Below are positions 22,590-39,069 of a stretch of 64,000 nt of DNA, piece by piece (position 1 is the stretch's first letter; each line of letters opens with the position of its first letter). Made by a program: the position numbers and the translations under genes. Under the pieces are notes generated by a model. It worked only from the letters and a program-made list of their open reading frames with translations, was not told the origin of the DNA and searched no databases. The stretch comes from Nitrospira sp. CG24B (GTDB taxonomy: Bacteria > Nitrospirota > Nitrospiria > Nitrospirales > Nitrospiraceae). The stretch spans positions 1,049,879-1,113,878 of the forward strand of contig NEWS02000004.1 of NCBI GenBank assembly GCA_002869845.2, written 5' to 3'.

Positions 22590-23555
22590 CTAGTGGCATA
22601 CTCGATCGGTGATACTCCAGTATTCAAAAACATCATGAGGAAATGGCCTCTCCCGCTCAAACCTCTGTGCCATGGCAGAATAGCTCACAAGGTCTCTCAT
22701 ATAGAGCGACTTCCAGTCAGCGACGCACTGTTGCACTCTACTCACCCAATCATGATCCAGAATATCCAACTGGGTACAACATGAGGCTATACGAGAGGCA
22801 TCTTGTGTACCCAATGAGATCGTGGCTCTCCCCGTTTGAAGCCCGGCAGCGATCCGCATCAGTGACAACCATTGCCATCCTTCCCGCTGTGGAATATTGA
22901 CGATCACTTTCCCTGATCGATTGATGGCGTTGCGGCGATTCCTTGAAATAAATTGCCGAGGACAGGCCACCGACAAGCCCCCCTTCTCCAACAACGCGAG
23001 CAATTTTGTCCGATATTCCGTCATGGCCCCGGTAAACACAAGGTCGTGAACGGTATCAAACGCCTTACCAACCACTTCGCATGGACCATCCCCAAGGGCA
23101 GGAAACGGGATCGTGCGCACGTCTAGACCTGGCAACATGACCGATATGTTTCGTAATTCAGGCAAGTCGCCTAAGACAAAGAAACACCGTAGATAGGGCA
23201 AGCACTCCGTGAGATACCTGATCCGCTTCAAAATCGTGGCCGAATGCATATAATCGTTCTGACTACCAAGGGGGGCACCGTGGAAATAGATCTGGCCATG
23301 TTGGAAATCCAAATGCTCGGTCATGATCACTGCGACTCGTTTTCGTGATGATCGGCAAAAATCCAGTAATACATCTCTACTCTTTTCGGTGGGAAAACCT
23401 TCAATGACAACATTCAGAGACGACCGGCGTGGCTGTCTTCCGACGGAAACCGGATAGCCGTGTTGTCGGAAAGCAGTGACCGCAAAGCTCACCTGGTCGC
23501 CAATCCCATACAATTGATGATTATAGACCCAACAATGGATCGAGGGCTTCTTCAA
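22590..23555 (-). CDS. Glycosyltransferase-like protein, family not recognised
   Basis: 321 residues from a TTG at 23555, which overlaps the upstream TGA as TTGA and has GAGG six nt before it. A longer reading from 23615 would overlap by 64 bp. I do not recognise a named family. A GT-B-like C-terminal half is suggested by DLVFTGAMTEYRTKLLALLE near residue 190, NIPQREGWQWLSLMRI near 230 and a donor-site-like GLQTGRATIS near 247. The N-terminal half has YNHQLYGIGDQ. Immediate coupling to the long GT4 upstream suggests a joint role. A non-catalytic partner is possible. Confidence 0.6.
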   Translation of the reverse strand: MKKPSIHCWVYNHQLYGIGDQVSFAVTAFRQHGYPVSVGRQPRRSSLNVVIEGFPTEKSRDVLLDFCRSSRKRVAVIMTEHLDFQHGQIYFHGAPLGSQNDYMHSATILKRIRYLTECLPYLRCFFVLGDLPELRNISVMLPGLDVRTIPFPALGDGPCEVVGKAFDTVHDLVFTGAMTEYRTKLLALLEKGGLSVACPRQFISRNRRNAINRSGKVIVNIPQREGWQWLSLMRIAAGLQTGRATISLGTQDASRIASCCTQLDILDHDWVSRVQQCVADWKSLYMRDLVSYSAMAQRFERERPFPHDVFEYWSITDRVCH

Positions 23556-25783
23556 CGGGTGCCTCGTCTTGCCGCTTCGATAGAATCGACGGGATTCCTC
23601 CAGTCTTGGAGCCACGCCGCCTCGGCAGTGAGTGCGCTCAGAATTTTGCGCTGAACCTCTTCAAGCGAGAGGCCTGAAAAAGAGGGGATAGATCGTTTTG
23701 AGAGCACTTGTGCTTGTGCAAATTCGCCTTCGCTTTGCAAGATGGCATGGAATTCCTTCCCTTGACGGACTATGTTGAAATTATGAAAACCCTCCAAAAC
23801 GACCTGGACCGGTTCAGCCTCTTCTTCGCAGGCGACCGACTTCAACGCCGGAAGGCTTGCGGCAATACTTCGGAGCACCTCACTGACAGAATCCCCACGA
23901 TGACATGAGGAATAGCCACCGGCCTCGGCCTTCTCCGGAGAAAACTCCCCTTCCCGCTGAAGAATGGCATAGTATCGATCATGATGACGAATAATGTTGT
24001 AGCCGGTTACTCCCTGACGAACGAGCTCGATCTCGGGTACTGCCTGAGGCCTGAAAAACCTGAACCCTCCATGCCGGCGATACACCGCGAGGACTTGGGC
24101 GGCATACTGGTACAAGGCAGGAAATGGCCTGAGAGTTTTGGAAATCCATTGAACCAACCTGCGCCGCAATCCTTCGCGTCGCCCTCCGAGCGGATGAAGG
24201 TATATTCCTTCCAGTTCTTCCAAGGTATTGGCGTACATCCCAGGCGGAGCGTCGTTTTTACAATACTGGGCTAATACCGACCAGTCATTCAGCTCGATGC
24301 GAGGATTTCCATACGTCTGGATCATGGCGCCGCTCAATTCCCATACCATGCCGAACTCCGTCTTAATTCGTAACATCGGCTGTGGAGGGCTTTCAAACAC
24401 TCGTGCCCAGCCATGATTCTGAATCGTACAATCGCTCAAGGCCAATTTCAGATTGTCGGAAGCAACTTCTGTTAGGTCAGACGTTCCTCTGAATTTCGTG
24501 TAGAGATCAGAAACCGAGCCCCAGAAGTTCTCGGCAAAACTCCGCCCTAGAAACTGCTGTTGCGCATGGACGATGGTGCGCCTGTGCATGTCCCAATATG
24601 CGTCATGATCTTCAAGAAGCCAGCATATGCGGGTGGTCAGTTGCTCCACAAGAAAACGATCAAGCTCCGGCCTTCGATAATAGTGGTCGACCAACATGCC
24701 TGTTAGCGCGTCTTTCTGCCAGACCTCATTTCGCACGCCGCGCAGAACAATCCCATTTTCCTCATCATGAACGAATACCGAGGTCCCCACAGTGTCAGTC
24801 ACGATTGGAATCGCTCCCGCCCTCATGGCCTCCATAATCGAGACAGAATGCAGAACCACACTGGGAAGCATGAGAAAATGCGCGCCGGCCATTAAAGACT
24901 GTATTTCATGGCTGGTCAGATAGCCTTGATCCCAGACGATACTTCGGCCGATCTCACCTTTGACCCAGGAGACATCAACGCCATATTCGCGCAATTCGAC
25001 ATCGCCGGGCATTGTGCTACGAAGCATCAGAAGGCCGTCTCGACCACTGGCTACAATCTCTTTCCAGAACCGTAAGACAAGATGCCCGCCTCGGCGAAAG
25101 AAATTCGCTGAATTCTGGTTGGCAGAGTTGATAAACAAGAATCGCGGTCTAGAAAGCGATGGCTTTTGCTCAGGTTCGTGCATAGAGAACGCATTGGCAC
25201 TTAACCCCATTCTTGAGGAAAACAACTTCCCGTCGATGGCCGGGTCGGAGAAAAACGAGCTCAGCGCATGAAGCGTGTCCGGTACATGGGAAAAGATTCC
25301 GAGACACAGAGGATTCGAAAAAATGCTTCGATAATGCTCCTTGAGTTCTTCATGGTTTTCAACATTGCCGCTTCCTTGCTGAGCAAACGGGAACAGAACT
25401 GGCGCAAACGACTCGCAGTGAAAGACAAATGGTCGTTTGAGGGAGGGAAATGGAGCGGTATGATGAAATTCCAGGTCCCCCTTGAGAGCGGTTGTCAGAA
25501 CGTGATCAGGGGGCCAGAAATACTCTTGATATCTCTTTGCAATAGAACTTCCATCACCTCGATCGTGACGATGCGCTTCCCACTTTGCTCTCTCTACCAC
25601 AGTCCTGCGCACAGAAGAATCATCCCGGAACTTGCGATAGAGCTTGACATTATCCCAGGCGGAAAGTTTGATATTCTCCGAAACATGATCGAACAATGCC
25701 CGATAGATCGGATGAAATCCATCCAATGGAATGTAGTGGCTAAGACTCCAAGGAATCGAGACGTTTAAGAGAGGACTGGGCAT
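23552..25783 (-). CDS. Long GT4-like glycosyltransferase with two C-terminal YN-motif repeats
   Basis: 743 residues. Residues about 120-420 contain a GT-B-like region: RFLFINSANQNSANFFRRGG near 214 and a donor-site segment SVSIMEAMRAGAIPIVTD near 314. Residues 435-560 are not recognised. The C-terminus has two copies of an unnamed domain, about 585-643 and 659-716, with cores GYNIIRHHDRYYAILQREGEF and the parallel FNIVRQGKEFHAILQSEGEF (each given only to its core). The same domain recurs in the GT2 at 30959 and the radical SAM protein at 26779. The donor is unknown. The 126 bp before the gene (25784-25909) hold no supported feature. Confidence 0.72.
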   Translation of the reverse strand: MPSPLLNVSIPWSLSHYIPLDGFHPIYRALFDHVSENIKLSAWDNVKLYRKFRDDSSVRRTVVERAKWEAHRHDRGDGSSIAKRYQEYFWPPDHVLTTALKGDLEFHHTAPFPSLKRPFVFHCESFAPVLFPFAQQGSGNVENHEELKEHYRSIFSNPLCLGIFSHVPDTLHALSSFFSDPAIDGKLFSSRMGLSANAFSMHEPEQKPSLSRPRFLFINSANQNSANFFRRGGHLVLRFWKEIVASGRDGLLMLRSTMPGDVELREYGVDVSWVKGEIGRSIVWDQGYLTSHEIQSLMAGAHFLMLPSVVLHSVSIMEAMRAGAIPIVTDTVGTSVFVHDEENGIVLRGVRNEVWQKDALTGMLVDHYYRRPELDRFLVEQLTTRICWLLEDHDAYWDMHRRTIVHAQQQFLGRSFAENFWGSVSDLYTKFRGTSDLTEVASDNLKLALSDCTIQNHGWARVFESPPQPMLRIKTEFGMVWELSGAMIQTYGNPRIELNDWSVLAQYCKNDAPPGMYANTLEELEGIYLHPLGGRREGLRRRLVQWISKTLRPFPALYQYAAQVLAVYRRHGGFRFFRPQAVPEIELVRQGVTGYNIIRHHDRYYAILQREGEFSPEKAEAGGYSSCHRGDSVSEVLRSIAASLPALKSVACEEEAEPVQVVLEGFHNFNIVRQGKEFHAILQSEGEFAQAQVLSKRSIPSFSGLSLEEVQRKILSALTAEAAWLQDWRNPVDSIEAARRGTR

Positions 25784-25909
25784 TTTATGTTATGTCGCCG
25801 GTTCATCGGCCAAGAGATGTACCAGACTGCACAACCAGCTTCGGCCGTAGACTAAGAAACTAGTCGTTCTTTTCGCCGCCACACCCCAGGCTCTTCCAGA
25901 TGTGGTGCG

Positions 25910-26782
25910 TTAGTGCACGGCCAAAAGTGGTTGGGGATATTCTTGAGTATATGCAAATGCGAGGTGGCGCCCATCACGATTGAAGAAGAACCCATTAGGA
26001 CCACCCGGCGGGTGTGACAGTAGAACCAGTACCATGCTGACTACGGCATAAGGGCTTTCCGTCGATCCCTGATTCATTTCCGTACGGGCTTCGCCGGGCA
26101 CCAACACATTGATCTGAACATCCTTGCTCGGATACCTCAACACACATTCGGCCGCAAGAGATGCCCCCAGCGTATTGAGAGCCGACTTACTGACATTATA
26201 TGGGCCGAAACCGGGCGTCGATGCCCAGCCCGCGAAAGAGGACAGAAAGAGAATCCGAAAACCATCGCCATGACCTAAGAGCGGCATGGCTGCCTTACAC
26301 GTTAACCATTGACCTGTCACGTTCGTTGTCAGGAGGTCCGTCCAAGCGACCGCACTTTGACCAGTGAGTGGGAATGCAGCCTCTCCTGATTGAGGAAGGG
26401 CGGCGCTGTTCACCAACCCATAGAGGCTAGGGGTAACGAGCTGGATATTTCTCACCGCACGGGCAAGATCGTCCTCCGATCTAATATCCACCGGAACAGC
26501 GATACAGCGCCTGACATCGATACCAAGCGCTGCGCCCTCGTCCACCGCTTCACGTAATTTCTCGATTCGTCGCCCTGAAATAAAGACCCGAGCTCCTGCA
26601 GCAGCAAGCGCCAGCGCAATGCACCGCCCATATCCGGTGCCCGCGCCCGTTATCCAAAAATCTCTTCCCTTAAGCCGCTCCCATCTCGTTTGCGGCAAGC
26701 CGAAACGATGTTCCCGCCAAGAAGCCGGATGGACGTTTTGCACAATGCCTGGCGTTACAATGTTTTTCTGGAACAACCTCAT
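25910..26782 (-). CDS. SDR family NAD(P)-dependent oxidoreductase
   Basis: 290 residues, classical SDR: WITGAGTGYGRCIALALAAA near residue 43 (TGxxxGxG), NSAALPQSG near 126 (N-A-A), FLSSFAGW near 187 and the catalytic YNVSKSALN near 203. The PGEART segment after it is the usual PG motif. The extra N-terminal 35 residues and the C-terminal NGFFFNRDG tail suggest a sugar-modifying role rather than fatty-acid metabolism. It overlaps the radical SAM gene by 4 bp (ATGA), so it may reduce a keto sugar or act on the product of that enzyme. Substrate is inference only. Confidence 0.8.
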   Translation of the reverse strand: MRLFQKNIVTPGIVQNVHPASWREHRFGLPQTRWERLKGRDFWITGAGTGYGRCIALALAAAGARVFISGRRIEKLREAVDEGAALGIDVRRCIAVPVDIRSEDDLARAVRNIQLVTPSLYGLVNSAALPQSGEAAFPLTGQSAVAWTDLLTTNVTGQWLTCKAAMPLLGHGDGFRILFLSSFAGWASTPGFGPYNVSKSALNTLGASLAAECVLRYPSKDVQINVLVPGEARTEMNQGSTESPYAVVSMVLVLLSHPPGGPNGFFFNRDGRHLAFAYTQEYPQPLLAVH

Positions 26783-29700
26783 ACTTCAACGGCACTACAC
26801 GACCTGTTATTGTTTTGGCCTAGCGCCAGGATTTCATTTTCAACAGCATCACGGGATACGTCGCGAATGACCCCCGGCATCTCAATGACGTCGATCTCGG
26901 TCAGATCAATAGAACCTAACGCATGCGGCATACCATAGATCCAACCTTCATAGGAGATGACGTCGTAGCCTTCCTCCGGCATGGCACGAAGTAAAACAGG
27001 TGATTTCGTAAAACCAGACGCGCGGGAGCGACCGCCAGTTGCGGCGACAGGGATCTCCCCCGCTCCCCCTCTGATTTTCAGAATCATCCCGTCAACTTCA
27101 GCAATGGTTTCTCCGACCAGCATGCCGGGAATCGACGCGAGCAAGCCGGAATCCCATTCCACATAGGCCCCATGGGGCACCCCGTAGAACAGACCGTCAA
27201 ATTTCACGAGGTTGTAATTGCCGATGGTCCACAACAATTCCGGTTGAGCATTCTTAGTCGCGACGGAGAGGATAGCGAAATCTTCTCCATGCACCGGCAC
27301 TCCGGACGATGTTTGGGCACCGGCACCCCGTCCGGTCACAAGGCGTATGATACGCTTCAGCGGCTCTTTAACATAGGCGACAGCTACCGCGTGCGGGAGC
27401 AGACGGGCAAGTTGCAGATCACTCAGATACCCTCCGGTTCCGCTGTTAAAACGTTCCTGACGGATGAGACGCCGAAGCTCCTCTTCAAATGATGGAGGCA
27501 GCAGCTCGGCCATCTGACGCCATACGCTGACATTGCGTTTGCTTTCTCCCGTGCTCTTGGATTTTCTTTCGATCGATGATCTCCGCCCAAACGGATTTTT
27601 TAAGGCTTCCTGATCCACGGCAATATACATCTTGCCGAATTGCAGAATACGAGGTTTGCTGGGGATCGTAGCGGATTCAGACATGTCGCCCACGCTATCC
27701 ACTCGCATGTAGGATCCGGACGCGCGCTGCTTCTTTTGATCATCGTAATGACCGCGTGAATTCGCCCATCGACCACTCTCTTCAATAACCGCGACAAGCT
27801 CCTCTTCGGTTGGATACCGTAGAATTCCCGCGATTGCGTCCGACTCAGGGCTTGTCACGTCAACACTGCTCAGTGCGGCGGGAACGCCATAGTACCAGCC
27901 GTTGTAGAAAAGGATCACATGCGTGTCCATTTTACGCACCATGCGGGGCGATTCTCCCGCGATCCCGAATAACGGAGGCTCCGCCAACGGTTTGTCGGCA
28001 TCCAACGTTTGAGTATCTTGCGCAGGGTACATAGGAAGTGCTTTTGCTGGACGCGCCGGGGTTTCCTCAGCGAGAGGCGACCGCTGGCTGGCAACTTCAA
28101 GCGCCCGCTCCTCTTCCGTAGGACTCGGGATATTTCCGGCATCTTTACCCCCCGCCACTTCAAATTCTCCGGCGCTGATTGCGTCGCCATTCGCTGAACC
28201 GGTTCGCGCTTTGTCGCGATTGAATTTGACGTCCTCAATTACCCGATGGGCCCAAGCTCCCACATTAAATCCCGCATCGTAGAGGGCAAGGACGATACGC
28301 TCAAACCGCTCTTTTCGTACCTGAGCGTCGATGTACGGATCGGTGCTGTGCCACTGGTCTGCGGGAAGAGCTCTCGGATACTTCTCGTACATTATTTCCT
28401 GAGGTTCCTTCAACACAATGTTATGGGAGGCCGGATCAATCCAGTAAACGCTGCCGTTCACCAAGATCAGCGGGTTGATGTTCGCCAGCCGACCGATATA
28501 CTTGCGATTCTTGAGAATGAGATCAATCCCCTCTTCCACGTCTTGATCCGTTTCTCCCGGAACGCCGATGACCCAGTTAACCTCGGTAAAGATCCCCACC
28601 TCCCAGCAGTCCTTTAGGTTCTGGGTGATCATGTCAGTCGTGTATCCCTTCATCTGCAGCCGTAACGTGCGCTCTGAAAAAGCGTCGATCCCGAAACGAA
28701 GCGCGACAAAATTGGCCTCCCGCAGCTTCTCGAAGAAGGCCCGGTTTTGCTTCCTGTTGACGCGGAGCTGGCCGGTGAGTTTTACCTTCCGATGAAGACC
28801 ACGACGAATAATCTCATCACAAATCTCCATGACTCGCTCGGGCATACCGCCAAGGTCGCTCTCGTTAAACATGAACAGATGGCAGCCCTGTCCGACCAAC
28901 CACTCCAGTTCATCCACAAAGTTTTCCTTGGTACGAATGCGCCAGTAGAACCGTTCGGCGCAGAACGTACAGCGCGACCAGCGACAACCCCGGCTTGCGA
29001 TAATGGGCGTCAATTGGTAGTCATTGAAGTTTCTGTACACGCTCAGGTCGCACCACTCGTACTTGGGGAATTCGATCTGATCGAGGTTATGAATCATCGG
29101 CGCCGGAATATAAGAATATTCGGGCGTATCGAAACGGGACAGTACACCCGGCTGATTGAACGGCCGCTCACCCCCGGCCAATGCCTCTAACAGCGGACCC
29201 GCCGTGAGGTCTGCTTCGCCGATGCACATGTAGTCGCATTCCGGAAATGCGCGAAGGCCGACATCCGCGTTGTAGCAACTGAACCCGCCCACCACAATTA
29301 TGATATCGGGTAACTGAGCCCTGACGCCGAGCGCAACCGCCCGCGCCGCCGCCTCATTGCATCCTTGGATCGAAAGCCCGAGTACTTTTGGCCGCGCTGC
29401 AACCAAAGCCGCGATCGTCTCGTCGATGACCGGCCTGAAGAACTCCAATACTTCGTTGCGCCCGGTTGGACCGGAAGCCCCTCCCCCTGTCGCAGTCCAC
29501 AGATCGTAGTGCTCCGCCTGCCAAGGATCCTCCGGCAAAGCCAAATCACCAGGCAGCGTGATGCAGCCACCCATGTCAAAGAGCCGGTGAATATGAAACC
29601 GATGGTAGGAGATAATGTCGAGATCGACAATCTGAAAAGATACCGCGGTCTTCTTCAGGGCATTGTTCAAATATCCCAATCCATTGGGCATCAAGGACAG

Positions 29701-30261
29701 GTTACGTGAGGGGCAGTCGACAATAGCCACGTCCAGATCCTTCCTGAACTGGACCTCTGGGAGTTCGATCGGATAAATATTGCGTGGTAACGGCGTCCAT
29801 CCGCGGGCCGGGATGACGTCGGGCGCAACCTCCGCCAAAACCGTGAGATCGACTATGGGGATCGATTGAGGCAACTGCCTCATCATCTGCATGCGTGATA
29901 ACGCCAACGTTTCGCAGAGGAACGCTGTTTGCGTTTCGACGGGCAACGCCCCAAGCGTGATACTGGCTAAGCCATGCAGCTGGTGCATCTCTGAAAGATT
30001 TTCGTACAACACAACGCCGATAATCCGAGCATTGAGGCTTGGGACATGCTGCAACAGGTAATCTACAAACCTCTTCGAACCAACCAGGGTAAGGCCTGGC
30101 AATGTCATGAGATGCGCCCCAAGCGCACACAGACACGCCACATCATCTGACCCATTGTCGAAGGCGAAGCATTGGTGAGGACTGAACGTGACACGTGCCC
30201 CCTCAACCTTGGCAGTTGCATGGCCTTTCTTAAGAGTCAAAACGACGGCTGTATCGGTCAT
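26779..30261 (-). CDS. Giant B12-binding-type radical SAM protein with C-terminal YN-motif repeats
   Basis: 1160 residues from the ATG at 30261, preceded by GAGG. Order: an unrecognised N-terminal region (1-170); a cobalamin-binding-like Rossmann region (about 175-365; VLGLSIQGCNEA near 293, VVGGFSCYN near 324) without a DxHxxG; a radical SAM domain (about 415-640) with Cys 426, 431 and 434 in CRWSRCTFC, spacing CX4CX2C instead of CX3CX2C; a low-complexity linker (about 690-760); then repeats of the unnamed YN domain at about 763-829, 1007-1062 and 1088-1147, with a degenerate one near 870-892. It probably methylates or rearranges a glycan or lipid. It sits between the TIR gene and an SDR. 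Confidence 0.8.
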   Translation of the reverse strand: MTDTAVVLTLKKGHATAKVEGARVTFSPHQCFAFDNGSDDVACLCALGAHLMTLPGLTLVGSKRFVDYLLQHVPSLNARIIGVVLYENLSEMHQLHGLASITLGALPVETQTAFLCETLALSRMQMMRQLPQSIPIVDLTVLAEVAPDVIPARGWTPLPRNIYPIELPEVQFRKDLDVAIVDCPSRNLSLMPNGLGYLNNALKKTAVSFQIVDLDIISYHRFHIHRLFDMGGCITLPGDLALPEDPWQAEHYDLWTATGGGASGPTGRNEVLEFFRPVIDETIAALVAARPKVLGLSIQGCNEAAARAVALGVRAQLPDIIIVVGGFSCYNADVGLRAFPECDYMCIGEADLTAGPLLEALAGGERPFNQPGVLSRFDTPEYSYIPAPMIHNLDQIEFPKYEWCDLSVYRNFNDYQLTPIIASRGCRWSRCTFCAERFYWRIRTKENFVDELEWLVGQGCHLFMFNESDLGGMPERVMEICDEIIRRGLHRKVKLTGQLRVNRKQNRAFFEKLREANFVALRFGIDAFSERTLRLQMKGYTTDMITQNLKDCWEVGIFTEVNWVIGVPGETDQDVEEGIDLILKNRKYIGRLANINPLILVNGSVYWIDPASHNIVLKEPQEIMYEKYPRALPADQWHSTDPYIDAQVRKERFERIVLALYDAGFNVGAWAHRVIEDVKFNRDKARTGSANGDAISAGEFEVAGGKDAGNIPSPTEEERALEVASQRSPLAEETPARPAKALPMYPAQDTQTLDADKPLAEPPLFGIAGESPRMVRKMDTHVILFYNGWYYGVPAALSSVDVTSPESDAIAGILRYPTEEELVAVIEESGRWANSRGHYDDQKKQRASGSYMRVDSVGDMSESATIPSKPRILQFGKMYIAVDQEALKNPFGRRSSIERKSKSTGESKRNVSVWRQMAELLPPSFEEELRRLIRQERFNSGTGGYLSDLQLARLLPHAVAVAYVKEPLKRIIRLVTGRGAGAQTSSGVPVHGEDFAILSVATKNAQPELLWTIGNYNLVKFDGLFYGVPHGAYVEWDSGLLASIPGMLVGETIAEVDGMILKIRGGAGEIPVAATGGRSRASGFTKSPVLLRAMPEEGYDVISYEGWIYGMPHALGSIDLTEIDVIEMPGVIRDVSRDAVENEILALGQNNNRSCSAVEV

Positions 30262-30464
30262 CACTTACCTCACATCAAAGTTAAAGAATCGATACTTCAA
30301 CACGACCCGGCCCTGCGCGCGATTTATCCCTTCCAACGGTAAACGATGGGAGCGAGCGAATACAGACAACATGCGTACGGATGCTCTCTCAAATAACTTT
30401 CAGCCTGTTCCCATTCGGGTCATCATCAACTTTTATCGTCATCCACCGAGGCGTCACAGCCAAA

Positions 30465-30926
30465 TCATCGCCCTACAGGCTGAGTTGCATATTTGGGAAG
30501 AGATCGCACTTCATCGATGGTGGCGATCAATCGTGCTCCGTCCCACCCGCTGGTGGCGTCGCACAACGCCGCCAGTTCATCCGGTATCGAATTTTTGTTG
30601 ATCGCGGGCATCGCGATAATGGGCTTATTGTGCTTCTTCGCCATTTCGACTTCCATATCAACCCAAACTCGGGCGCTCCGAATCTCATACACCCCGGCAA
30701 GCAGCACAACAACATGCACGGGAATAATCTGGCTTTCCAGAGAAGTTCGAATAAATCGGCCTCCTGCTTCCGTATTCGGACTTATTGCTGGGTCATGCCA
30801 CGGCAAGCTGAAATTCCGCCACAGGAGCCCCGGTATCTTGTCCATCAGTTCGGTATATTTCGTCCAATCCTCATGAAAACGCCAGGCATGAGTAATAAAG
30901 AGGTCATAGGTTTTTGAATTCCCCAT
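30465..30926 (-). CDS. TIR-like protein of the MTH538/ThsB group
   Basis: 153 residues, a stand-alone TIR-like fold (DUF1863/MTH538 type). Signs: YDLFITHAWRFHEDW at residue 7, WRNFSLPWHDP near 36, LESQIIPVHVVVLLAGVYE near 62, VDMEVEMAKKHNKPIIAM near 88 and a final TSGWDGARLIATIDEV near 125. ThsB proteins of Thoeris anti-phage defence have this layout and make a cyclic-ADP-ribose-type signal from NAD. No SIR2/SLOG ThsA partner is visible in the window. It lies 32 bp after a GT2 gene and 204 bp before the radical SAM gene; that spacer (30262-30464) holds no other supported gene. The TIR could instead use a nucleotide sugar or NAD in glycan chemistry. Confidence 0.8.
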   Translation of the reverse strand: MGNSKTYDLFITHAWRFHEDWTKYTELMDKIPGLLWRNFSLPWHDPAISPNTEAGGRFIRTSLESQIIPVHVVVLLAGVYEIRSARVWVDMEVEMAKKHNKPIIAMPAINKNSIPDELAALCDATSGWDGARLIATIDEVRSLPKYATQPVGR

Positions 30927-30958
30927 TATGAGCGTTCCCGAATCGATCGCTACCTGGT

Positions 30959-32230
30959 CTAACCCCTAGATGCCACGTGGACTTTTTCTAGAATCACTTC
31001 GTAGTTTTTGGCAACCAGTAGATCCGGGTGAACCCTTCCTTCGTCCGTCGACAAATCGAGATGGCCAATACTCTTTGGCACAGCAAAATACTCATCTTTG
31101 AATTTTACGAGGTTGTACCTCTTTACAGAGCACAGGAGCGTCGGAGCGTCTGCCGGCACTTCATAATTGATTCGACGTGGAAGGATGCGATCTTGATACA
31201 TGGCTCGAAGTCTTCCCGCGACGCGTGGTCCTAGGAACGAAACAATACCTTTGCGAAAGGGAATCCAGACACGATCTGCAAGATACTGCCCGATGATTTC
31301 TTTCGCCAGTGATAGCCATAACGACCACACCGCCAAAAATGAATAGCCGCTTTGCTCAGTTAAGTCGGCATACCGAGTTTCAAGCTCGGAACCGATGCGC
31401 CGATTCCGCATCCGCAAAGCCCAGATATTGCGATTTTCACGAAGCGGTTGAAATCGACCTGTGGAAAACGCTTCCACAGCCGTCAGCGCGTGGCCATTAA
31501 TATGTGGGTACGCCTTTTCCAGCAGCTGTTTCAGCGAAGCCCGCTGGCCATTTGTGCCAATTGGGTCCGGATGAGCGAAGTGCCACAGCGCCACAGCCTC
31601 ATCATGCCACACTTCCTGCCAACCGGCATTGATCAGGCGCCACCCCAAATCATAAGGCCCACATAGATAGCCTCGATAACTGGGATGTTCATCAAAACCT
31701 CCGAATCGGATCGCGTCGGCTCGACGCACAGTCATACATGCACCCTCATTGACAATGAGAGGCCACCATTGCCAGCGCTCGCTATCCTTGAGTGTCTCAG
31801 TGTCGGCCAGACCTTCGGGATAGAGGAGAGACGTGCGCCATTCATAGTGCATAAGCACCAGTGGAACAGCCGATCCCCCGGACTCCATCTGAAATGAACG
31901 AAACACGGAACGCACGAAATCAGGGGGAAACACCGCATCACTATCGCATACACAGATCAATTCACCACGCGCATGCAACAAGCCGGCGTTATAACCGACA
32001 TGTTTGTGATAGATACCCTGTTGGTTGCACGTGATGACGACATCTGCCTTCTTCAACACTTCGTCGACGACGCGGTCATAGACTTCCACCCATATCAGCT
32101 CATACTGATCTTTCGGCACATCTTGTTGTAGCAGCCAATCCAGGGTGGTGAACCTCTCGCGACATCCCCAATCTAATAGAATGATGGATAGGCGGGGAGA
32201 GGAAGCCGATACGCTTTTGTGAACGATCAT
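30959..32230 (-). CDS. GT2 glycosyltransferase with one C-terminal YN-motif domain
   Basis: 423 residues from the ATG at 32230 (AGGA ten nt before it); a TTG at 32302 would add 24 residues. The GT2 domain (about 1-260) has LSIILLDWGCRERF at 14, NAGLLHARGELICVCDSDAV near 81 (DxD), and GGFDEHPSYRGYLCGPYDLGW near 177. Residues 260-360 are basic with a possible membrane-associated helix (about 298-322). The last 60 residues carry the YN domain (about 363-418; core RYNLVKFKDEYFAVPKSIGH), the clearest match to copies in the radical SAM and long GT4 proteins. Upstream (32231-32476, 246 bp) I see no gene or clear signal. Confidence 0.8.
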   Translation of the reverse strand: MIVHKSVSASSPRLSIILLDWGCRERFTTLDWLLQQDVPKDQYELIWVEVYDRVVDEVLKKADVVITCNQQGIYHKHVGYNAGLLHARGELICVCDSDAVFPPDFVRSVFRSFQMESGGSAVPLVLMHYEWRTSLLYPEGLADTETLKDSERWQWWPLIVNEGACMTVRRADAIRFGGFDEHPSYRGYLCGPYDLGWRLINAGWQEVWHDEAVALWHFAHPDPIGTNGQRASLKQLLEKAYPHINGHALTAVEAFSTGRFQPLRENRNIWALRMRNRRIGSELETRYADLTEQSGYSFLAVWSLWLSLAKEIIGQYLADRVWIPFRKGIVSFLGPRVAGRLRAMYQDRILPRRINYEVPADAPTLLCSVKRYNLVKFKDEYFAVPKSIGHLDLSTDEGRVHPDLLVAKNYEVILEKVHVASRG

Positions 32231-32476
32231 CGAAATAATATCCTGAGAAGGTCTATTTAACGAGCACAACAATTGAGGCGTACAATCATCTACTTCGCTC
32301 AATTGCTAGAACTAGAATGGAGAGCAAAACGATTCTCAGCGACTTTCGCTCTGGGCTTGAAAGCGCATGAATACGACACCGAATAATGAGCTTGAGAAGT
32401 TCACTTCAATGCGCTCAGCCTCTATCGAACATTCAAATGGCGCAAAATGGCTTCTTCAACAGTCTTGCTCGTGCGA
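32231..32476. other. 246-bp spacer without a supported gene
   Basis: Between the wzt-like gene and the GT2 start. Short ORFs here overlap the wzt end in another frame and show no family. I see no hairpin with a T-run and no copy of the 120-bp repeat. An in-frame TTG at 32302 for the GT2 gene lies in it and cannot be fully excluded. Confidence 0.4.
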
Positions 32477-33811
32477 TCAAGATCGCGAATAAAACTGTTC
32501 CTCAAGGACCTCGAAGGTTGTCGCAAGATCGACAAGACCGTCAAATGGTCGATCGCGATCCAAGCACACCAAGCAGTGCGCGATCGATCGGCGAACATCC
32601 AACACACATCCACCCCGTGTGCCATCTACCTGCATCACACCAAGATCAAGAAAGTAATCTCCAGGACTTATACTAAGAACGAATGCAAATTTAAAGACCC
32701 GTGTCTCTCCGCCAGAGATTGGCTTTAATTGTTCTCCCATAATGATTGTATTTGTGGCATAGACATATATCCCCTCCACCGTCTTGATGCAAAATCCAAC
32801 TGCGGGTTCCTGTACATCTCTAAAGAATGCCGCCTTCACATAAATGTGAAGCATGGATCGGAAAGAGACGTCGACGACATCCCACAAGCCTTCACATTGG
32901 AGTGCATAATCTACGATCTTAGCGTCGCCGTTACCAAATCGCGTCTCGGTCTTATTGTAGCTTTTCCGGCCATGACAAACATCCTCCATCGAGTGTGTAC
33001 TTGCCATTTCCGAAACCACCCTATTTACACCACCTATCTCTTCTCTTATCGTGGTGCTTTGTGAGCCTTCCGATGAGCTATTCCTGCCGAAGAGCAGTTC
33101 ATGATACTTATCGACAATCAACCCAGGCTCTCCGGTTGCTATCATCTTCCCATGATCCAGCAAAACCGCCTGCTGCGCATAAGTTGTAACCAACGCCATA
33201 CTGTGAGTAACGAACAAGATCGTGATACCTCGCTCGCGCAAGGCCGACAAATGCTCATAACATTTATGTTGAAACTTCGCATCTCCTACCGCCAATGCCT
33301 CATCAATTATCAGAACATCAGGGTCTACGTGAATCGTGGCTGCAAACGCTGCCCGCACAAACATCCCCGATGAATATGTTTTGACGGGCTGATCGAAAAA
33401 CTCCCCGATGTCGGCAAACGCTTGGATGTGCGGCATGCGCTCGATCATCTCATCACGAGGGATTCCAAGTAATGCGCCATTCAGCATCACATTGTCACGT
33501 CCTGTGAAATCGGGATTGAACCCAGCTCCGAGCTCGAGCAATGCCGCAACTCTCCCATTCACAGCCACGCTGCCGTTTGTAGGTTGGACTATTCCCGCAA
33601 TGATCTGAAGAAGAGTGGATTTTCCTGATCCGTTTCGTCCGATAATTCCGATGGTCTTCCCCTTGGAGATATCAATGCTGACCTCATTGAGAGCCAAAAA
33701 CTCTCGGTGATACCGTTTCCGAAATGGATGGAACGTCTCGAAAAGTCGCTCCTGTGGAGAAGCGAAAAGCCTGAATTTTTTAGATACGTTCCTAACTGAA
33801 ATTGCAATCAT
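32477..33811 (-). CDS. wzt: O-antigen ABC transporter ATP-binding protein (Wzt-like)
   Basis: 444 residues. The nucleotide-binding domain (about 1-245) has Walker A GRNGSGKST near 58, the Q-loop-like region before YSSGMFVRAAFAAT (signature, near 145) and Walker B VLIIDEAL near 168, followed by the switch His in FVTHSM near 203. The extra C-terminal domain (about 265-440), with GDYFLDLGV, is the Wzt-type carbohydrate-binding domain that recognises the terminal residue of a finished O-chain. It is 18 bp downstream of the permease. This implies export of a complete, end-modified glycan; the methyltransferases nearby are candidates for the capping. Confidence 0.9.
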   Translation of the reverse strand: MIAISVRNVSKKFRLFASPQERLFETFHPFRKRYHREFLALNEVSIDISKGKTIGIIGRNGSGKSTLLQIIAGIVQPTNGSVAVNGRVAALLELGAGFNPDFTGRDNVMLNGALLGIPRDEMIERMPHIQAFADIGEFFDQPVKTYSSGMFVRAAFAATIHVDPDVLIIDEALAVGDAKFQHKCYEHLSALRERGITILFVTHSMALVTTYAQQAVLLDHGKMIATGEPGLIVDKYHELLFGRNSSSEGSQSTTIREEIGGVNRVVSEMASTHSMEDVCHGRKSYNKTETRFGNGDAKIVDYALQCEGLWDVVDVSFRSMLHIYVKAAFFRDVQEPAVGFCIKTVEGIYVYATNTIIMGEQLKPISGGETRVFKFAFVLSISPGDYFLDLGVMQVDGTRGGCVLDVRRSIAHCLVCLDRDRPFDGLVDLATTFEVLEEQFYSRS

Positions 33812-33829: not shown

Positions 33830-34672
33830 CTACATTACGTCGGCGAATTGCGGCTTGAGTCGGCTAAACACGTAGGAGCCCGTTAGAAGCAAAAAGAGTG
33901 CAACGCTCCAAAAGTACACAGTCTGGCCAGCATCCGGCAACTGATGGGAGAGCAACACGCCACGATACCCCTGAATAATGTAGTCGAGAGGGTTATACCT
34001 CAAGATCGGTTGGTACTGTTCTGGCAGATTATCGGGTGACCAGACGATGGGGGTCGCCCAAAACAAGAGGTTCAACCCAATACCAAGCCCATGAGAGATG
34101 TCCCTATAGAATACTTGGATAGCTGATAGGAGCCAGCCTAACCCTACAACGAGGACACAGGTGCAGAAAACAAAGTAGAGCATCAGGAGCATAGAGAGAT
34201 GAAACGTAACGTGATAGTACGCCAACATCCCAGCCAAGAGAACCGTGAAGACCCCGTGGGGTACTAGACTTGCCGTCAGATGGACTGCTGCGAGAACTTC
34301 CGAAGGGAAGACGGTCTTCTTGATAAAATGGGCGTTCCGGACGACGGAATCCGTGATCGAGGTCAGCGATTCGTTAAAAAACAGCCACGGCACAAAACCA
34401 GAGACAAACCAAAGTATGAATGGTGTATTGCCTGGCCCCTGAGATCGAAATCCAATGGCAAAGACAAAATAGAATATGAATATGACGGCTACCGGATGTG
34501 CAAACGTCCATACAATCCCGGCCAGCGTCCCCGCGTACCTGCCCTGCAGATCTCGAGCCGCCAGGGCAAGAATCATCGTCCGGTAGCGATACAGATTCCG
34601 AAACAGCTGAAGAATCAGTACCACCTGCCGTTCGGTGAGGTATGGATATCTATTCGATTGAGCTGACTGCAC
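33830..34672 (-). CDS. wzm: O-antigen ABC transporter permease (Wzm-like)
   Basis: 280 residues from a GTG at 34672. Six membrane segments of the ABC-2 type: LALAARDLQGRYAGTLAG (coupling region) near 35, VWTFAHPVAVIFIFYFVFAI, WFVSGFVPWLFFNESL near 88, and the conserved VRNAHFIKKTVFP near 113. Near the C-terminus RYNPLDYIIQGYRGVLL is typical of polysaccharide exporters. It works with the adjacent ATPase to move lipid-linked glycan across the inner membrane. The pair appears A+T-richer than neighbouring genes by eye. Confidence 0.9.
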   Translation of the reverse strand: MQSAQSNRYPYLTERQVVLILQLFRNLYRYRTMILALAARDLQGRYAGTLAGIVWTFAHPVAVIFIFYFVFAIGFRSQGPGNTPFILWFVSGFVPWLFFNESLTSITDSVVRNAHFIKKTVFPSEVLAAVHLTASLVPHGVFTVLLAGMLAYYHVTFHLSMLLMLYFVFCTCVLVVGLGWLLSAIQVFYRDISHGLGIGLNLLFWATPIVWSPDNLPEQYQPILRYNPLDYIIQGYRGVLLSHQLPDAGQTVYFWSVALFLLLTGSYVFSRLKPQFADVM

Positions 34673-36401: not shown

Positions 36402-37571
36402 TCACGCGGAGTTTAGTACCTTGCACAACTCATCGATCTCCTCATCGCGAAGATCCGGATAGTTCCCGATGTAGAAACCGTAGAAATGAACATGCTCGGT
36501 TTCCGGAAAGTGCAGATGGTGATCGTTCGGCACAACGCCTTTGAGATACGGCTGGCGAATTTGATTGCCTCCACCCGCACTCCCACGCCGAAACTCGATG
36601 CCCCCCTCGCGCATCACTCTCATGAGGCGTTCGACCAATGCGTTGTCCGGACGTGTCAGAATGAGATTGAACGCGTAATTACTTGACCCTTCAACCTTGA
36701 AATCGGTGCGGTATCGATCGGAATCGAGCTGCCGAAGAAACCGTAGGAGGTTTTCCGTCCGACGCTTCACGTTACGATCCAGACGCTTCAGTTGGCTTCG
36801 ACCCAGGATGCCGCCGATCTCCGTATTCCTAGTGTTATAGGCCGGAAATGCAAAAATGAAATCAGGATTCAATTCCGGATTGGCGGATCGGTAGGCCCCT
36901 TGGACCGCTGGATCGGTGGCCTCTCGGACCATGCCATGAGACCGCAACATACGAACCTGCTGATACACCTCCTGATCATTCGTGCAGATCATACCTCCCT
37001 CAATCGTGCTCATATGGTGCGCGTAGTAGAAGGAGAAATTCGAGATCCATCCAAAACTCCCCAACTTCCGGCCATGGTGCGTGGCCCCATGGGACTCGCA
37101 CACGTCCTCAATCAGTGGAACACGCCGCTGCTGCAACTCGTTCAATAGCCGGTCCTCCAGTCCATCAAAGCCTTGCACGTGTGTCAGAAAGACTGCGCGG
37201 GTTCGTTCCGTGATCGCGGCCAAAATCTTGTCCGGATGCATCCCCAGGGTTCGAGGATCGATATCAACAAAGACCGGCGTGAATCCATTCTGCAAGACCG
37301 ACGCAATATCGGAGACCCACGCTAACGGCGGCACAATCACCTCTCCGCCCTCGGGGTAACGGATTTTCAGGACGGCCATCGTCAAGAGATTCGCCGACGC
37401 TCCGGAATTGACGAAGACACTGTGCGTCACTCCCAGCCACGCCGACCATTCGGCCTCAAACGCCCGCACATTCGAACCGTGCGTCAGGATCGGATCTTCC
37501 TGTTTGAGATGCTCGATCACCGCATCCAGATCTTCACGAAGTATATTGTTGCGCATCAACGGATATTTCAT
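36402..37571 (-). CDS. DegT/StrS-fold PLP enzyme with active-site His (ColD/RfbH-type 3-dehydratase)
   Basis: 389 residues of the DegT/DnrJ/EryC1 fold: LTHGSNVRAFEAEWS near 29, NSGASANLLTM near 56, EDVCESHGATHHGRKLGSFG near 155. The decisive site is NFSFYYAHHMSTIEGGM near 178: where aminotransferases have the PLP lysine this protein has His. That substitution is known in ColD and RfbH, which remove the 3-hydroxyl of a 4-keto-6-deoxy nucleotide sugar rather than transfer an amino group. So a 3-deoxy sugar is expected. It is flanked by the split thiamine enzyme and the HddC-like gene. Substrate (GDP-hexose or GDP-heptose) is inference. Confidence 0.85.
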   Translation of the reverse strand: MKYPLMRNNILREDLDAVIEHLKQEDPILTHGSNVRAFEAEWSAWLGVTHSVFVNSGASANLLTMAVLKIRYPEGGEVIVPPLAWVSDIASVLQNGFTPVFVDIDPRTLGMHPDKILAAITERTRAVFLTHVQGFDGLEDRLLNELQQRRVPLIEDVCESHGATHHGRKLGSFGWISNFSFYYAHHMSTIEGGMICTNDQEVYQQVRMLRSHGMVREATDPAVQGAYRSANPELNPDFIFAFPAYNTRNTEIGGILGRSQLKRLDRNVKRRTENLLRFLRQLDSDRYRTDFKVEGSSNYAFNLILTRPDNALVERLMRVMREGGIEFRRGSAGGGNQIRQPYLKGVVPNDHHLHFPETEHVHFYGFYIGNYPDLRDEEIDELCKVLNSA

Positions 37572-37673
37572 AAATACCTACTCACACCCCTCGGAAGCAT
37601 CCGATACAAATTGCACCACTCCGCAACCAGACGCCGCTATCAGACATTTTTAAAACCACTCTTGCCTGATCGC

Positions 37674-37794
37674 AGGATGGTCAAAAAGGCCGTCCAGCAA
37701 GGCCGCAACGAGTGAAGAGGCGAGACGTACGCTTCGGTACGTTGAGCCTCTGAGCGATGCGAGAACGAAGCTGGCAGACTTTTTCAACATCCCG
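37674..37794 (-). repeat. Dispersed intergenic repeat, copy B (about 120 bp)
   Basis: Same orientation as copies A and C. Ends GGATGGTCAAAAAG (from 37675) and CTTTTTCAACATCC (to 37792) are inverted. The interior has GCAAGGCCGCAACGAG and a CGTAC-GCTTCG-GTACG hairpin (about 37726-37742). It stops right before the TAG of the thiamine-enzyme beta gene at 37795. It carries no ORF. Confidence 0.85.
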
Positions 37795-38331
37795 CTATTT
37801 CTCGTTGTAGTAATCGCCATACTCGACAATGATGGTGCTGCGTCCATCGTCACGCAACAGGGCCCACTCATAGGCCGGAAAGACATCTTTTGGTTCTTCC
37901 AGCCGGATGATCTCGATCGTACTGCACATCAGGCGGATCGCCTCGGTGAAGTCACCCACATGCTGATGCTGCGGGTGGAGCGGACGCTGAGCCCCGATCC
38001 CCGTCCGGATAATGGCCTTGCTTTTGTACCCGCCGTTGGACATCACCTGAATTTTGTCTAAATGATTGACCAACTGATTAACGGCCAAGAGCAGGAAATT
38101 CCATCGCGGGAAAATGCTCACGGGAACGAGCCCGCTCAGGGCCAAACCGGTCGTCATTCCCATCTGCATCTCCTCGGCAACCGGAAGCTCGATCAAACGA
38201 TCGGAGGGCACCTCCTTGAGCGTGTTGCTCATCGCCGTTCCAGCAACAGACACCGCTTGTCCGAGAAAAACCGTCCGCGAATCCTGCGCCAGGAAATTCA
38301 TCGACCGCTGAAGTTCATCAAAATATTTCAT
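37795..38331 (-). CDS. Thiamine-diphosphate enzyme, beta-type (pyrimidine) subunit
   Basis: 178 residues. It corresponds to only the pyrimidine-binding domain of E1-beta or transketolase; the C-terminal transketolase domain is absent. ELPVAEEMQMGMTTGLALSG near 48 contains the conserved Glu that activates thiamine diphosphate, and PVSIFPRWNFLLLAVNQLVN near 71 is family-like. AAGGTGAGAC gives a good ribosome site. It is encoded 138 bp after the alpha-type gene; the pair resembles the small split E1-like enzymes that add a two-carbon unit to deoxy-sugars (as in avilamycin eurekanate synthesis) more than pyruvate dehydrogenase. It is flanked by repeat copies B and C. Confidence 0.75.
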   Translation of the reverse strand: MKYFDELQRSMNFLAQDSRTVFLGQAVSVAGTAMSNTLKEVPSDRLIELPVAEEMQMGMTTGLALSGLVPVSIFPRWNFLLLAVNQLVNHLDKIQVMSNGGYKSKAIIRTGIGAQRPLHPQHQHVGDFTEAIRLMCSTIEIIRLEEPKDVFPAYEWALLRDDGRSTIIVEYGDYYNEK

Positions 38332-38387
38332 GTCTCACCTTAGAAGGCAGTTGAAAAGCTTTTGGGTAGTCGAAAATCCTGGCGTGT

Positions 38388-38469
38388 AGGATGTTCAAAA
38401 AGGGCGTCCAGCAAGGCCACAGCCAGCGAAGAGGCGAGAACGAAGCTGGAGAACTTTTTCAACATCCTG
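38388..38469 (-). repeat. Dispersed intergenic repeat, copy C (82 bp, internally deleted)
   Basis: Ends match copies A and B (GGATGTTCAAAAAG from 38389; CTTTTTCAACATCC to 38467). About 38 bp present in copy B between two GCGAGA direct repeats are missing, removing the inner CGTAC/GTACG hairpin; this is what a deletion between the GCGAGA repeats would give. It abuts the TAA of the alpha-type thiamine gene (38470). Confidence 0.85.
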
Positions 38470-39069
38470 TTAGAACTGAACCCGCACGCCGGCGCCCGCA
38501 TGCGGATACTTCGTTTCATAGCGGTAGTAGCTGATGTACTCGTCGGCTGCGTCTTCAAAACTCAGGCGAGGCTGATTCCAGGCTTCTCTGGTATCGGTAC
38601 AGACTGATTTTGCGTTGTCCTCAATAATGAAGTGGATCGGCAAGCAGTGGTTTCGGCTGTACTTGATCGCCTCGTGCGCAATCCCTGTCTCCGCTGTCAT
38701 ATCACCCATGAAGCAATAGACTTTGGCATCCTCCCCACGCCGCTGAATCGACATCGCCGCGCCGACGGCGATCGGCAAGACACCACCCACAATGGCCGAG
38801 GAGAACACACGCTGCTCCGGGAAGCAGAGGGAAATCGACCGACCGGCCACGATCTCATCTCGGACAGAATCTTTCGGGACCCCCTTCAACAAGCACTGAT
38901 AATGCGAACGCCACGAGCAAAATACCCAGTCCTGAGCGCGAATATTGCGAAACACTCGGATCATCGCTTCTTCATTTCCAAAATACAGATGAATGGGCGC
39001 GCGAATCTTTCCTGCATTGAACAACGTGGCAATTTCTTCTTCAAATGCGATTAACTCGTCTTTCGTCAT
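38470..39069 (-). CDS. Thiamine-diphosphate enzyme, alpha-type (diphosphate-binding) subunit
   Basis: 199 residues, much shorter than pyruvate dehydrogenase E1-alpha (over 320). The thiamine-diphosphate motif is visible as GDMTAETGIAHEAIKYSRNH near 133 continued to IIEDN near 160. Upstream are SWRSHYQCLLKGVP near 52 and VGGVLPIAVGAAMSIQRRG near 105, the E1-alpha order. A GGGGAG site precedes the ATG. With the beta-type gene it should form a two-subunit carboligase or decarboxylase using pyruvate or an alpha-keto acid. The ColD-type gene downstream supplies a plausible 4-keto-3-deoxy acceptor. Confidence 0.75.
   Translation of the reverse strand: MTKDELIAFEEEIATLFNAGKIRAPIHLYFGNEEAMIRVFRNIRAQDWVFCSWRSHYQCLLKGVPKDSVRDEIVAGRSISLCFPEQRVFSSAIVGGVLPIAVGAAMSIQRRGEDAKVYCFMGDMTAETGIAHEAIKYSRNHCLPIHFIIEDNAKSVCTDTREAWNQPRLSFEDAADEYISYYRYETKYPHAGAGVRVQF

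What the first reader, a model, noticed from the sequence alone, without database searches (positions are those of the whole stretch)
23552..32230. Unnamed ~55-residue domain repeated in three different enzymes
The GT2 (30959-32230), the radical SAM protein (26779-30261) and the long GT4 (23552-25783) share a C-terminal module not explained by their catalytic domains. Its core is [YF]N[LI][VI], then about five residues, [YF][YFH][AG][VIM], then in several copies a G-x-x-D-L-T/S-like stretch, a PG[MV]L/I-like turn and a C-terminal amphipathic helix. Copies: GT2 one (30977-31144); radical SAM three plus a degenerate one (26821-27000, 27076-27243, 27775-27975); GT4 two (23636-23809, 23855-24031). 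I do not recognise a Pfam family. A common module on a glycosyltransferase, a radical SAM enzyme and a second glycosyltransferase in one operon suggests a docking or substrate-binding tag that assembles a multi-enzyme complex on one glycan or lipid carrier. Shared sequence is seen; the function is inference.
Basis: partly seen in the sequence, partly recalled or inferred. Interest (0 to 1): 0.82.

Follow-up and report, generated by a model that had tools for sequence, protein, structure and literature searches.

The report
New recruitment module of glycan enzymes
A small protein domain that no database we searched describes is repeated on many different enzymes, and sometimes on the export pump, of the same sugar-polymer assembly lines in about ten bacterial phyla, so it is probably the part that holds these enzymes on their common substrate or on each other.

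Summary
Six copies of one ~56-residue domain lie on a GT2, a B12-type radical SAM enzyme and a GT4 in a Nitrospira glycan cluster. A profile built only from copies in other phyla and other enzyme classes recovers all six (20-60 bits; decoys at most 5.7). No Pfam, NCBIfam, PHROG or PDB-sequence family matches it. AlphaFold gives a compact beta-beta-beta-(helix)-beta-helix fold (pLDDT 91) with no close PDB match.

The domain is much wider than the window. It occurs patchily in Nitrospirota, Nitrospinota, Omnitrophota, Pseudomonadota, Cyanobacteria, Planctomycetes and others. Hosts are GT2, GT4, GT2-GT4 fusions, two radical SAM types, sulfotransferases, methyltransferases, an acyltransferase, an APS kinase and the exporter ATPase Wzt, where it is inserted at the hinge before the carbohydrate-binding domain. 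Arrays reach 16 copies; two-module proteins without an enzyme exist. Wzt_C genes lie within 10 kb of a module 14 times of 32 (0.28 expected).

Best reading: a pathway-wide recruitment module that tethers assembly and tailoring enzymes and the exporter to one lipid-linked glycan. Whether it grips the glycan or a protein is not settled. Azospirillum lipoferum 4B is a named test case.

The parts
30959..32302 (-). GT2-type glycosyltransferase (447 aa from TTG) with one C-terminal module
   Evidence: PF00535 E 2.5e-6, PF13506 E 5.6e-6; module aa 387-442
30977..31144 (-). module copy on GT2
   Evidence: 50-56 bits with profiles from other phyla and other host classes; AF2 pLDDT 90.8, pTM 0.77
26779..30264 (-). 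B12-binding radical SAM protein (1161 aa) with three modules
   Evidence: PF04055 E 1.1e-14, PF02310 E 4.2e-6; nearest NCBIfam TIGR03975 at 108 bits, below its cut-off 281.85
27784..27948 (-). rSAM module 1 (aa 773-827)
   Evidence: strand/helix order
27595..27654 (-). degenerate rSAM copy, hairpin only (aa ~871-890)
   Evidence: strands at model residues 183-187 and 190-194, low confidence
27082..27243 (-). rSAM module 2 (aa 1008-1061)
26830..27000 (-). rSAM module 3 (aa 1089-1145), the best conserved across phyla (65-75% to outside Nitrospira)
23552..25783 (-). GT4-like glycosyltransferase (743 aa) with two C-terminal modules
   Evidence: PF13692 E 8.8e-5, just below cut-off
23861..24031 (-). 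GT4 module 1 (aa 585-641)
23639..23806 (-). GT4 module 2 (aa 660-715), absent from some orthologues
   Evidence: orthologues with one copy only
30465..30926 (-). TIR-like protein between GT2 and rSAM, conserved neighbour, no module
   Evidence: PF08937 E 3.7e-5; 52-98% identical homologues in module loci, several in other phyla
25910..26782 (-). SDR-family dehydrogenase between rSAM and GT4, conserved neighbour, no module
   Evidence: PF00106 E 1.4e-30; 50-97% homologues in module loci, next to the rSAM in most
32477..33811 (-). Wzt ATPase (NBD + Wzt_C) without the module; its relatives in L068, L071 and L072 carry the module in the hinge
   Evidence: PF00005, PF14524; alignment
33830..34672 (-). 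Wzm exporter membrane subunit
   Evidence: PF01061 E 4.2e-19

Best explanation
The module is an undescribed, independently folding recruitment domain of glycan-assembly systems, many of which export through Wzm/Wzt ABC transporters. It sits on flexible linkers or in arrays, in one to sixteen copies, on the enzymes that build and decorate one lipid-linked glycan at the cytoplasmic face, and in some genomes on the exporter ATPase. By binding something these proteins share, it keeps successive enzymes on the same molecule until export. The most likely shared ligand is the glycan (or its lipid-linked base); arrays would give avidity for a repeating chain. Shown: a common domain, a fold model, the hosts, clustering with the exporter, conservation by position. 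Inferred: cytoplasmic action, recruitment, and the glycan as ligand. I put the general recruitment role at about 0.75 and the glycan as direct ligand at about 0.45.
For: Hosts of unlike chemistry but one pathway type: GT2, GT4, GT2-modules-GT4, B12-rSAM, SPASM-rSAM, sulfotransferase, Methyltransf_24 and other methyltransferases, Acyl_transf_3, Wzt, adenylyl-sulfate kinase. In Wzt of L068, L071 and L072 the module is inserted between NBD and Wzt_C and is absent at that point in the window Wzt. Wzt_C lies within 10 kb of a module in 14 of 32 cases, expected 0.28. Genomes mostly have none or several copies: 13 of 14 strongly hit genomes in an even phylum sample have two or more. Module-only (145 aa, two copies) and module-plus-coiled-coil proteins exist. 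Arrays of 9, 11 and 16 copies. The GT2 copy folds alone with high confidence, and the rSAM copies are separated by stretches mostly under pLDDT 50. N11 85%, aromatics at 10, 15, 19 and 20, G27 83%, D30 75%: with alternating strands both sheet faces keep conserved aromatics, so one exposed face is a likely binding surface (inference). All nine genomes with this rSAM among 59 relatives are module genomes.
Against: No binding or interaction data. Modules on different enzymes of one genome are not significantly more alike than modules from different genomes (79 of 1000 permutations reach the observed value), so no locus-specific code is seen. The three rSAM modules differ from each other (31% identity) yet keep their identity across phyla (64%), which suits distinct partners better than one common glycan. 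The window's own Wzt has no module. Eleven of the 24 genomes checked show no Wzt_C within 10 kb of a module (some assemblies are fragmented). Clustering with Wzt may only reflect that all these genes are glycan genes.
Confidence: 0.5

Rival explanations
1. Protein-protein docking module: copies bind each other (homotypic) or a protein scaffold such as the module-plus-coiled-coil proteins, and so build a multi-enzyme complex. The glycan is not touched by the module.
For: Position-specific conservation of the three rSAM modules across phyla; two-module proteins and a module-plus-coiled-coil protein without enzyme; none-or-several distribution; known Wzm/Wzt-dependent O-antigen systems do form multiprotein complexes on a coiled-coil protein (PMC11231755).
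Against: No candidate partner common to all loci was found: hosts and neighbours differ between loci. Sixteen similar copies on one rSAM are hard to explain by pairwise docking.
Confidence: 0.33
2. Intramolecular or regulatory domain: each module packs on or gates its own enzyme, or binds a small ligand such as a nucleotide sugar. Sharing between enzymes is then domain shuffling with no joint function.
For: Position-specific conservation; the module lies right at the hinge of Wzt, where it could act on the ATPase.
Against: Low-confidence linkers around modules, varying copy number in orthologues (GT4 with one or two copies), module-only proteins, co-occurrence on several enzymes of one locus.
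Confidence: 0.12
3. Chance resemblance or a compositional repeat, not a domain.
For: Low identity between window copies, mostly 11-29%.
Against: Independent profile test, 364 profile matches, in 55 of 56 pattern loci, confident fold.
Confidence: 0.01

Closest known systems
RiPP recognition element (RRE, PqqD-like) domains (PMC12710340)
   Same: Small recognition domain shared by unlike tailoring enzymes, radical SAM enzymes among them, or standing alone, that brings them to one common substrate.
   Different: RREs bind leader peptides; here the hosts are glycan enzymes. No copy matched a PqqD-type family in Pfam. Analogy of working only.
Wzt C-terminal carbohydrate-binding domain (PF14524; PMC9445017)
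   Same: Non-catalytic domain in Wzm/Wzt glycan export; our module sits directly before it in some Wzt proteins.
   Different: Wzt_C is a ~143-position jelly-roll found on the exporter that reads the chain cap; the module is ~56 aa, with three strands, one short strand and a helix, and is on enzymes as well. Both occur in the same protein.
WbdD/WbdA-type assembly complexes with coiled-coil ruler (PMC11231755)
   Same: Multi-enzyme assembly of ABC-exported O-antigens; some module hosts are methyltransferases with coiled coils.
   Different: There the contacts are specific to each pair; here one domain family is spread over the pathway.
MmoD, inhibitory subunit of soluble methane monooxygenase (PDB 6d7k_D)
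   Same: Best structural neighbour: Z 4.4, 48 residues, 2.0 A.
   Different: Z is in the range of common arrangements; no sequence match. Not evidence of kinship.

Membership tests
Any Pfam-A family | significant match of the module to a model | tested here: not met
   149 diverse copies, best E 0.023 with no model hit by more than one copy
Any NCBIfam family | significant match of the module to a model | tested here: not met
   149 copies, best E 0.0083, unrelated models
RRE / PqqD | matches the PqqD-type profile | tested here: not met
   not among Pfam matches of 149 copies; divergent RREs are known to escape profiles (PMC12710340), so this covers the profile only
RRE / PqqD | binds a leader peptide of a precursor gene in the locus | not tested
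   no search for precursor peptides was made
RRE / PqqD | winged-helix fold | tested here: inconclusive
   model has three strands, a short helix, a fourth strand and one long C-terminal helix; no direct superposition was made
Wzt_C carbohydrate-binding domain | matches PF14524 | tested here: not met
   no copy matches; PF14524 matches a separate stretch (371-509) of the same protein, module at 261-320
Carbohydrate-binding module (functional class) | binds a carbohydrate | not testable with these tools
   needs a binding assay
MmoD fold family | same fold beyond common arrangement | tested here: inconclusive
   Z 4.4, next 3.0; Foldseek no E <= 0.001
B12-binding radical SAM, TIGR03975 (window rSAM host) | score above 281.85 bits | tested here: not met
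   107.7 bits

The most novel reading that the evidence does not exclude
A general, so far unnamed tethering system of bacterial glycan assembly: one domain family marks polymerases, radical SAM and sulfate tailoring enzymes and the exporter of a pathway, and physically channels a lipid-linked glycan from enzyme to enzyme to the pump, comparable in reach to RREs in peptide pathways.
Probability: 0.4. Interest if true: 0.88.

Novelty: new variant of a known kind. Interest (0 to 1): 0.74.

Why it matters
How the many enzymes of a pathway stay on one growing glycan is known for only a few O-antigen systems. A portable, recognisable domain on several of them at once would make the question testable by deletion and pull-down, would serve as a genome-mining handle for unusual (radical SAM-modified, sulfated) surface glycans in uncultured phyla, and could be used to bring enzymes together by design.

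Tried and rejected
The module is not found in viral contigs with the pattern nor in phage records by tblastn. PDB sequence searches gave nothing significant; Foldseek gave nothing at E <= 0.001 and VIA-align nothing above Z 4.4, which does not show that the fold is new. The longer rSAM model is poor overall (pLDDT 53, pTM 0.27); only the strand/helix order of the modules was used. A locus-specific code was tested and not found. Literature searches for a repeated domain in such clusters found no paper. Pseudomonas O-antigen papers were listed but not read, so no link is claimed. One pattern locus (L095) had no module.

Full report
WHAT WAS CLAIMED. I checked the sequence, then looked for the module elsewhere.

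The six copies lie at the stated places. Inside the window the similarity is weak: with one host left out, the remaining copies find GT2 at E 8e-6 and the others at about 0.2. With outside copies it is unambiguous: profiles from 118-122 copies in other phyla, leaving out either the radical SAM hosts or the GT hosts, score all six at 20-60 bits, against at most 5.7 bits in 20 shuffles of each window ORF. In the window's own genome six module matches were found, all in this cluster.

NO KNOWN FAMILY. 149 diverse copies (alignment A4) match no Pfam model and no NCBIfam model. PDB sequences give nothing, PHROGs nothing (on 25 copies). AlphaFold2 on the GT2 copy gives pLDDT 90.8 and pTM 0.77 with strands 11-16, 19-24, 27-32, a short helix, strand 52-54 and helix 57-68. 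The three rSAM copies show the same order, joined by stretches of mostly very low confidence. Foldseek finds no PDB match at E <= 0.001; the best aligned chain is MmoD, Z 4.4, too weak to use.

WHO CARRIES IT. The window belongs to the genus Nitrospira (titles of L117, L120, L125 and L127; kinship and identical contig places). A DNA pattern for a common form found 56 loci in the collection of 84,980 species genomes; 55 hold the module by profile. By record title they come from Nitrospirota, Nitrospinota, Omnitrophota, Gamma-, Beta- and Alphaproteobacteria, 'Deltaproteobacteria', Myxococcales, Cyanobacteria, Planctomycetes, Lentisphaerota, Acidobacteria and KSB1. Two Azospirillum plasmids carry it too. 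It is patchy: 14 strong genomes of 296 in Nitrospirota, 3 of 77 in Nitrospinota, two of these being seeds, 1 of 146 in Cyanobacteria, the seed itself. Of the 14 strong Nitrospirota genomes 13 hold two or more copies.

HOST PROTEINS. GT2; GT4; GT2-modules-GT4 fusions; GT2-GT2-modules-methyltransferase; B12-binding radical SAM; SPASM radical SAM; sulfotransferases; Methyltransf_24 and other methyltransferases, some with coiled coils; an Acyl_transf_3 acyltransferase; an F5/8C-domain protein; an annotated adenylyl-sulfate kinase; Wzt ATPases; a protein of two modules and a coiled coil; 145-residue proteins of two modules and nothing else, each next to a SPASM radical SAM protein with 4 or 16 modules. 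Copy number runs from 1 to 16. In three Wzt proteins the module is inserted between the ATPase domain and Wzt_C, where the window's Wzt has none.

LINK TO EXPORT. In 24 module genomes, 14 of 32 Wzt_C matches lie within 10 kb of a module, in 13 genomes; 0.28 are expected if positions were random (the module list was cut, so the 14 is a lower bound). Both are glycan genes, so the figure shows shared loci, not contact.

THE WINDOW'S CASSETTE. GT2, TIR-like protein, rSAM and SDR stand together in Nitrospira, Methylomonas, Rhodocyclaceae and another betaproteobacterium. The rSAM catalytic part is 85-88% identical between Nitrospira and gamma/betaproteobacteria (77% to Bradyrhizobium), modules 36-75%, the linker before module 3 0-25%. 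Each rSAM module keeps its identity by position: 64% same position, 31% different position. Among 59 relatives all nine genomes with this rSAM are module genomes.

MECHANISM. Shown: a portable, folding domain spread over the enzymes of glycan loci and, in part, the exporter; flexible spacing; arrays; enzyme-free forms. Inferred: it recruits these proteins to something they share. The glycan as ligand is favoured by arrays, by the Wzt site, by conserved aromatics and Asn on a three-stranded sheet, and by the lack of a common partner protein. Protein docking is favoured by position-specific conservation and by known complexes (PMC11231755). A test for locus-specific likeness was inconclusive. 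I hold recruitment at about 0.75 and the glycan as direct ligand at about 0.45.

COMPARISON. It works most like the RRE of peptide pathways (PMC12710340) but is not one by profile. It is not Wzt_C, with which it shares proteins. As a pathway-wide module in glycan assembly I found no precedent in the papers searched, which cover open-access literature only.

Noticed in passing
window 30465-30926: A TIR-like protein (ThsB_TIR, PF08937) sits between GT2 and rSAM and is conserved with them (52-98%) in several phyla; a TIR-type fold in a glycan cassette is unusual and its role is unknown.
   Followed up: partly
window 27655-27783 (rSAM aa 828-870): Directly after rSAM module 1 a motif WANSRGxYDDQKKQRxxGSYMRADS is conserved across phyla (42-72% identity), better than the low-confidence stretch that follows.
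   Followed up: partly
window 28198-30264 (rSAM catalytic part): 85-88% identity of the rSAM core between Nitrospira and gamma/betaproteobacteria, high for different phyla: suggests horizontal transfer of the cassette and one conserved substrate.
   Followed up: partly
L134:7380-11894: SPASM radical SAM protein of 1504 aa with 16 tandem modules in a Nitrospinae MAG, preceded by a 145-aa two-module protein.
   Followed up: yes
window 22590-23615: 341-aa protein without Pfam match that overlaps the GT4 gene and has homologues beside the GT4 in Nitrospira and two Pseudomonas loci (45-97% identity).
   Followed up: partly
window 36402-39069: DegT aminotransferase beside a split TPP enzyme (Transket_pyr and E1_dh); the Azospirillum module locus L138 also has DegT and a transketolase C-terminal protein, hinting at a shared unusual sugar.
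   Followed up: no
L137 and G335 (Lentisphaerota strain zth2): Module copies are scattered over the chromosome here instead of lying in one cluster.
   Followed up: no
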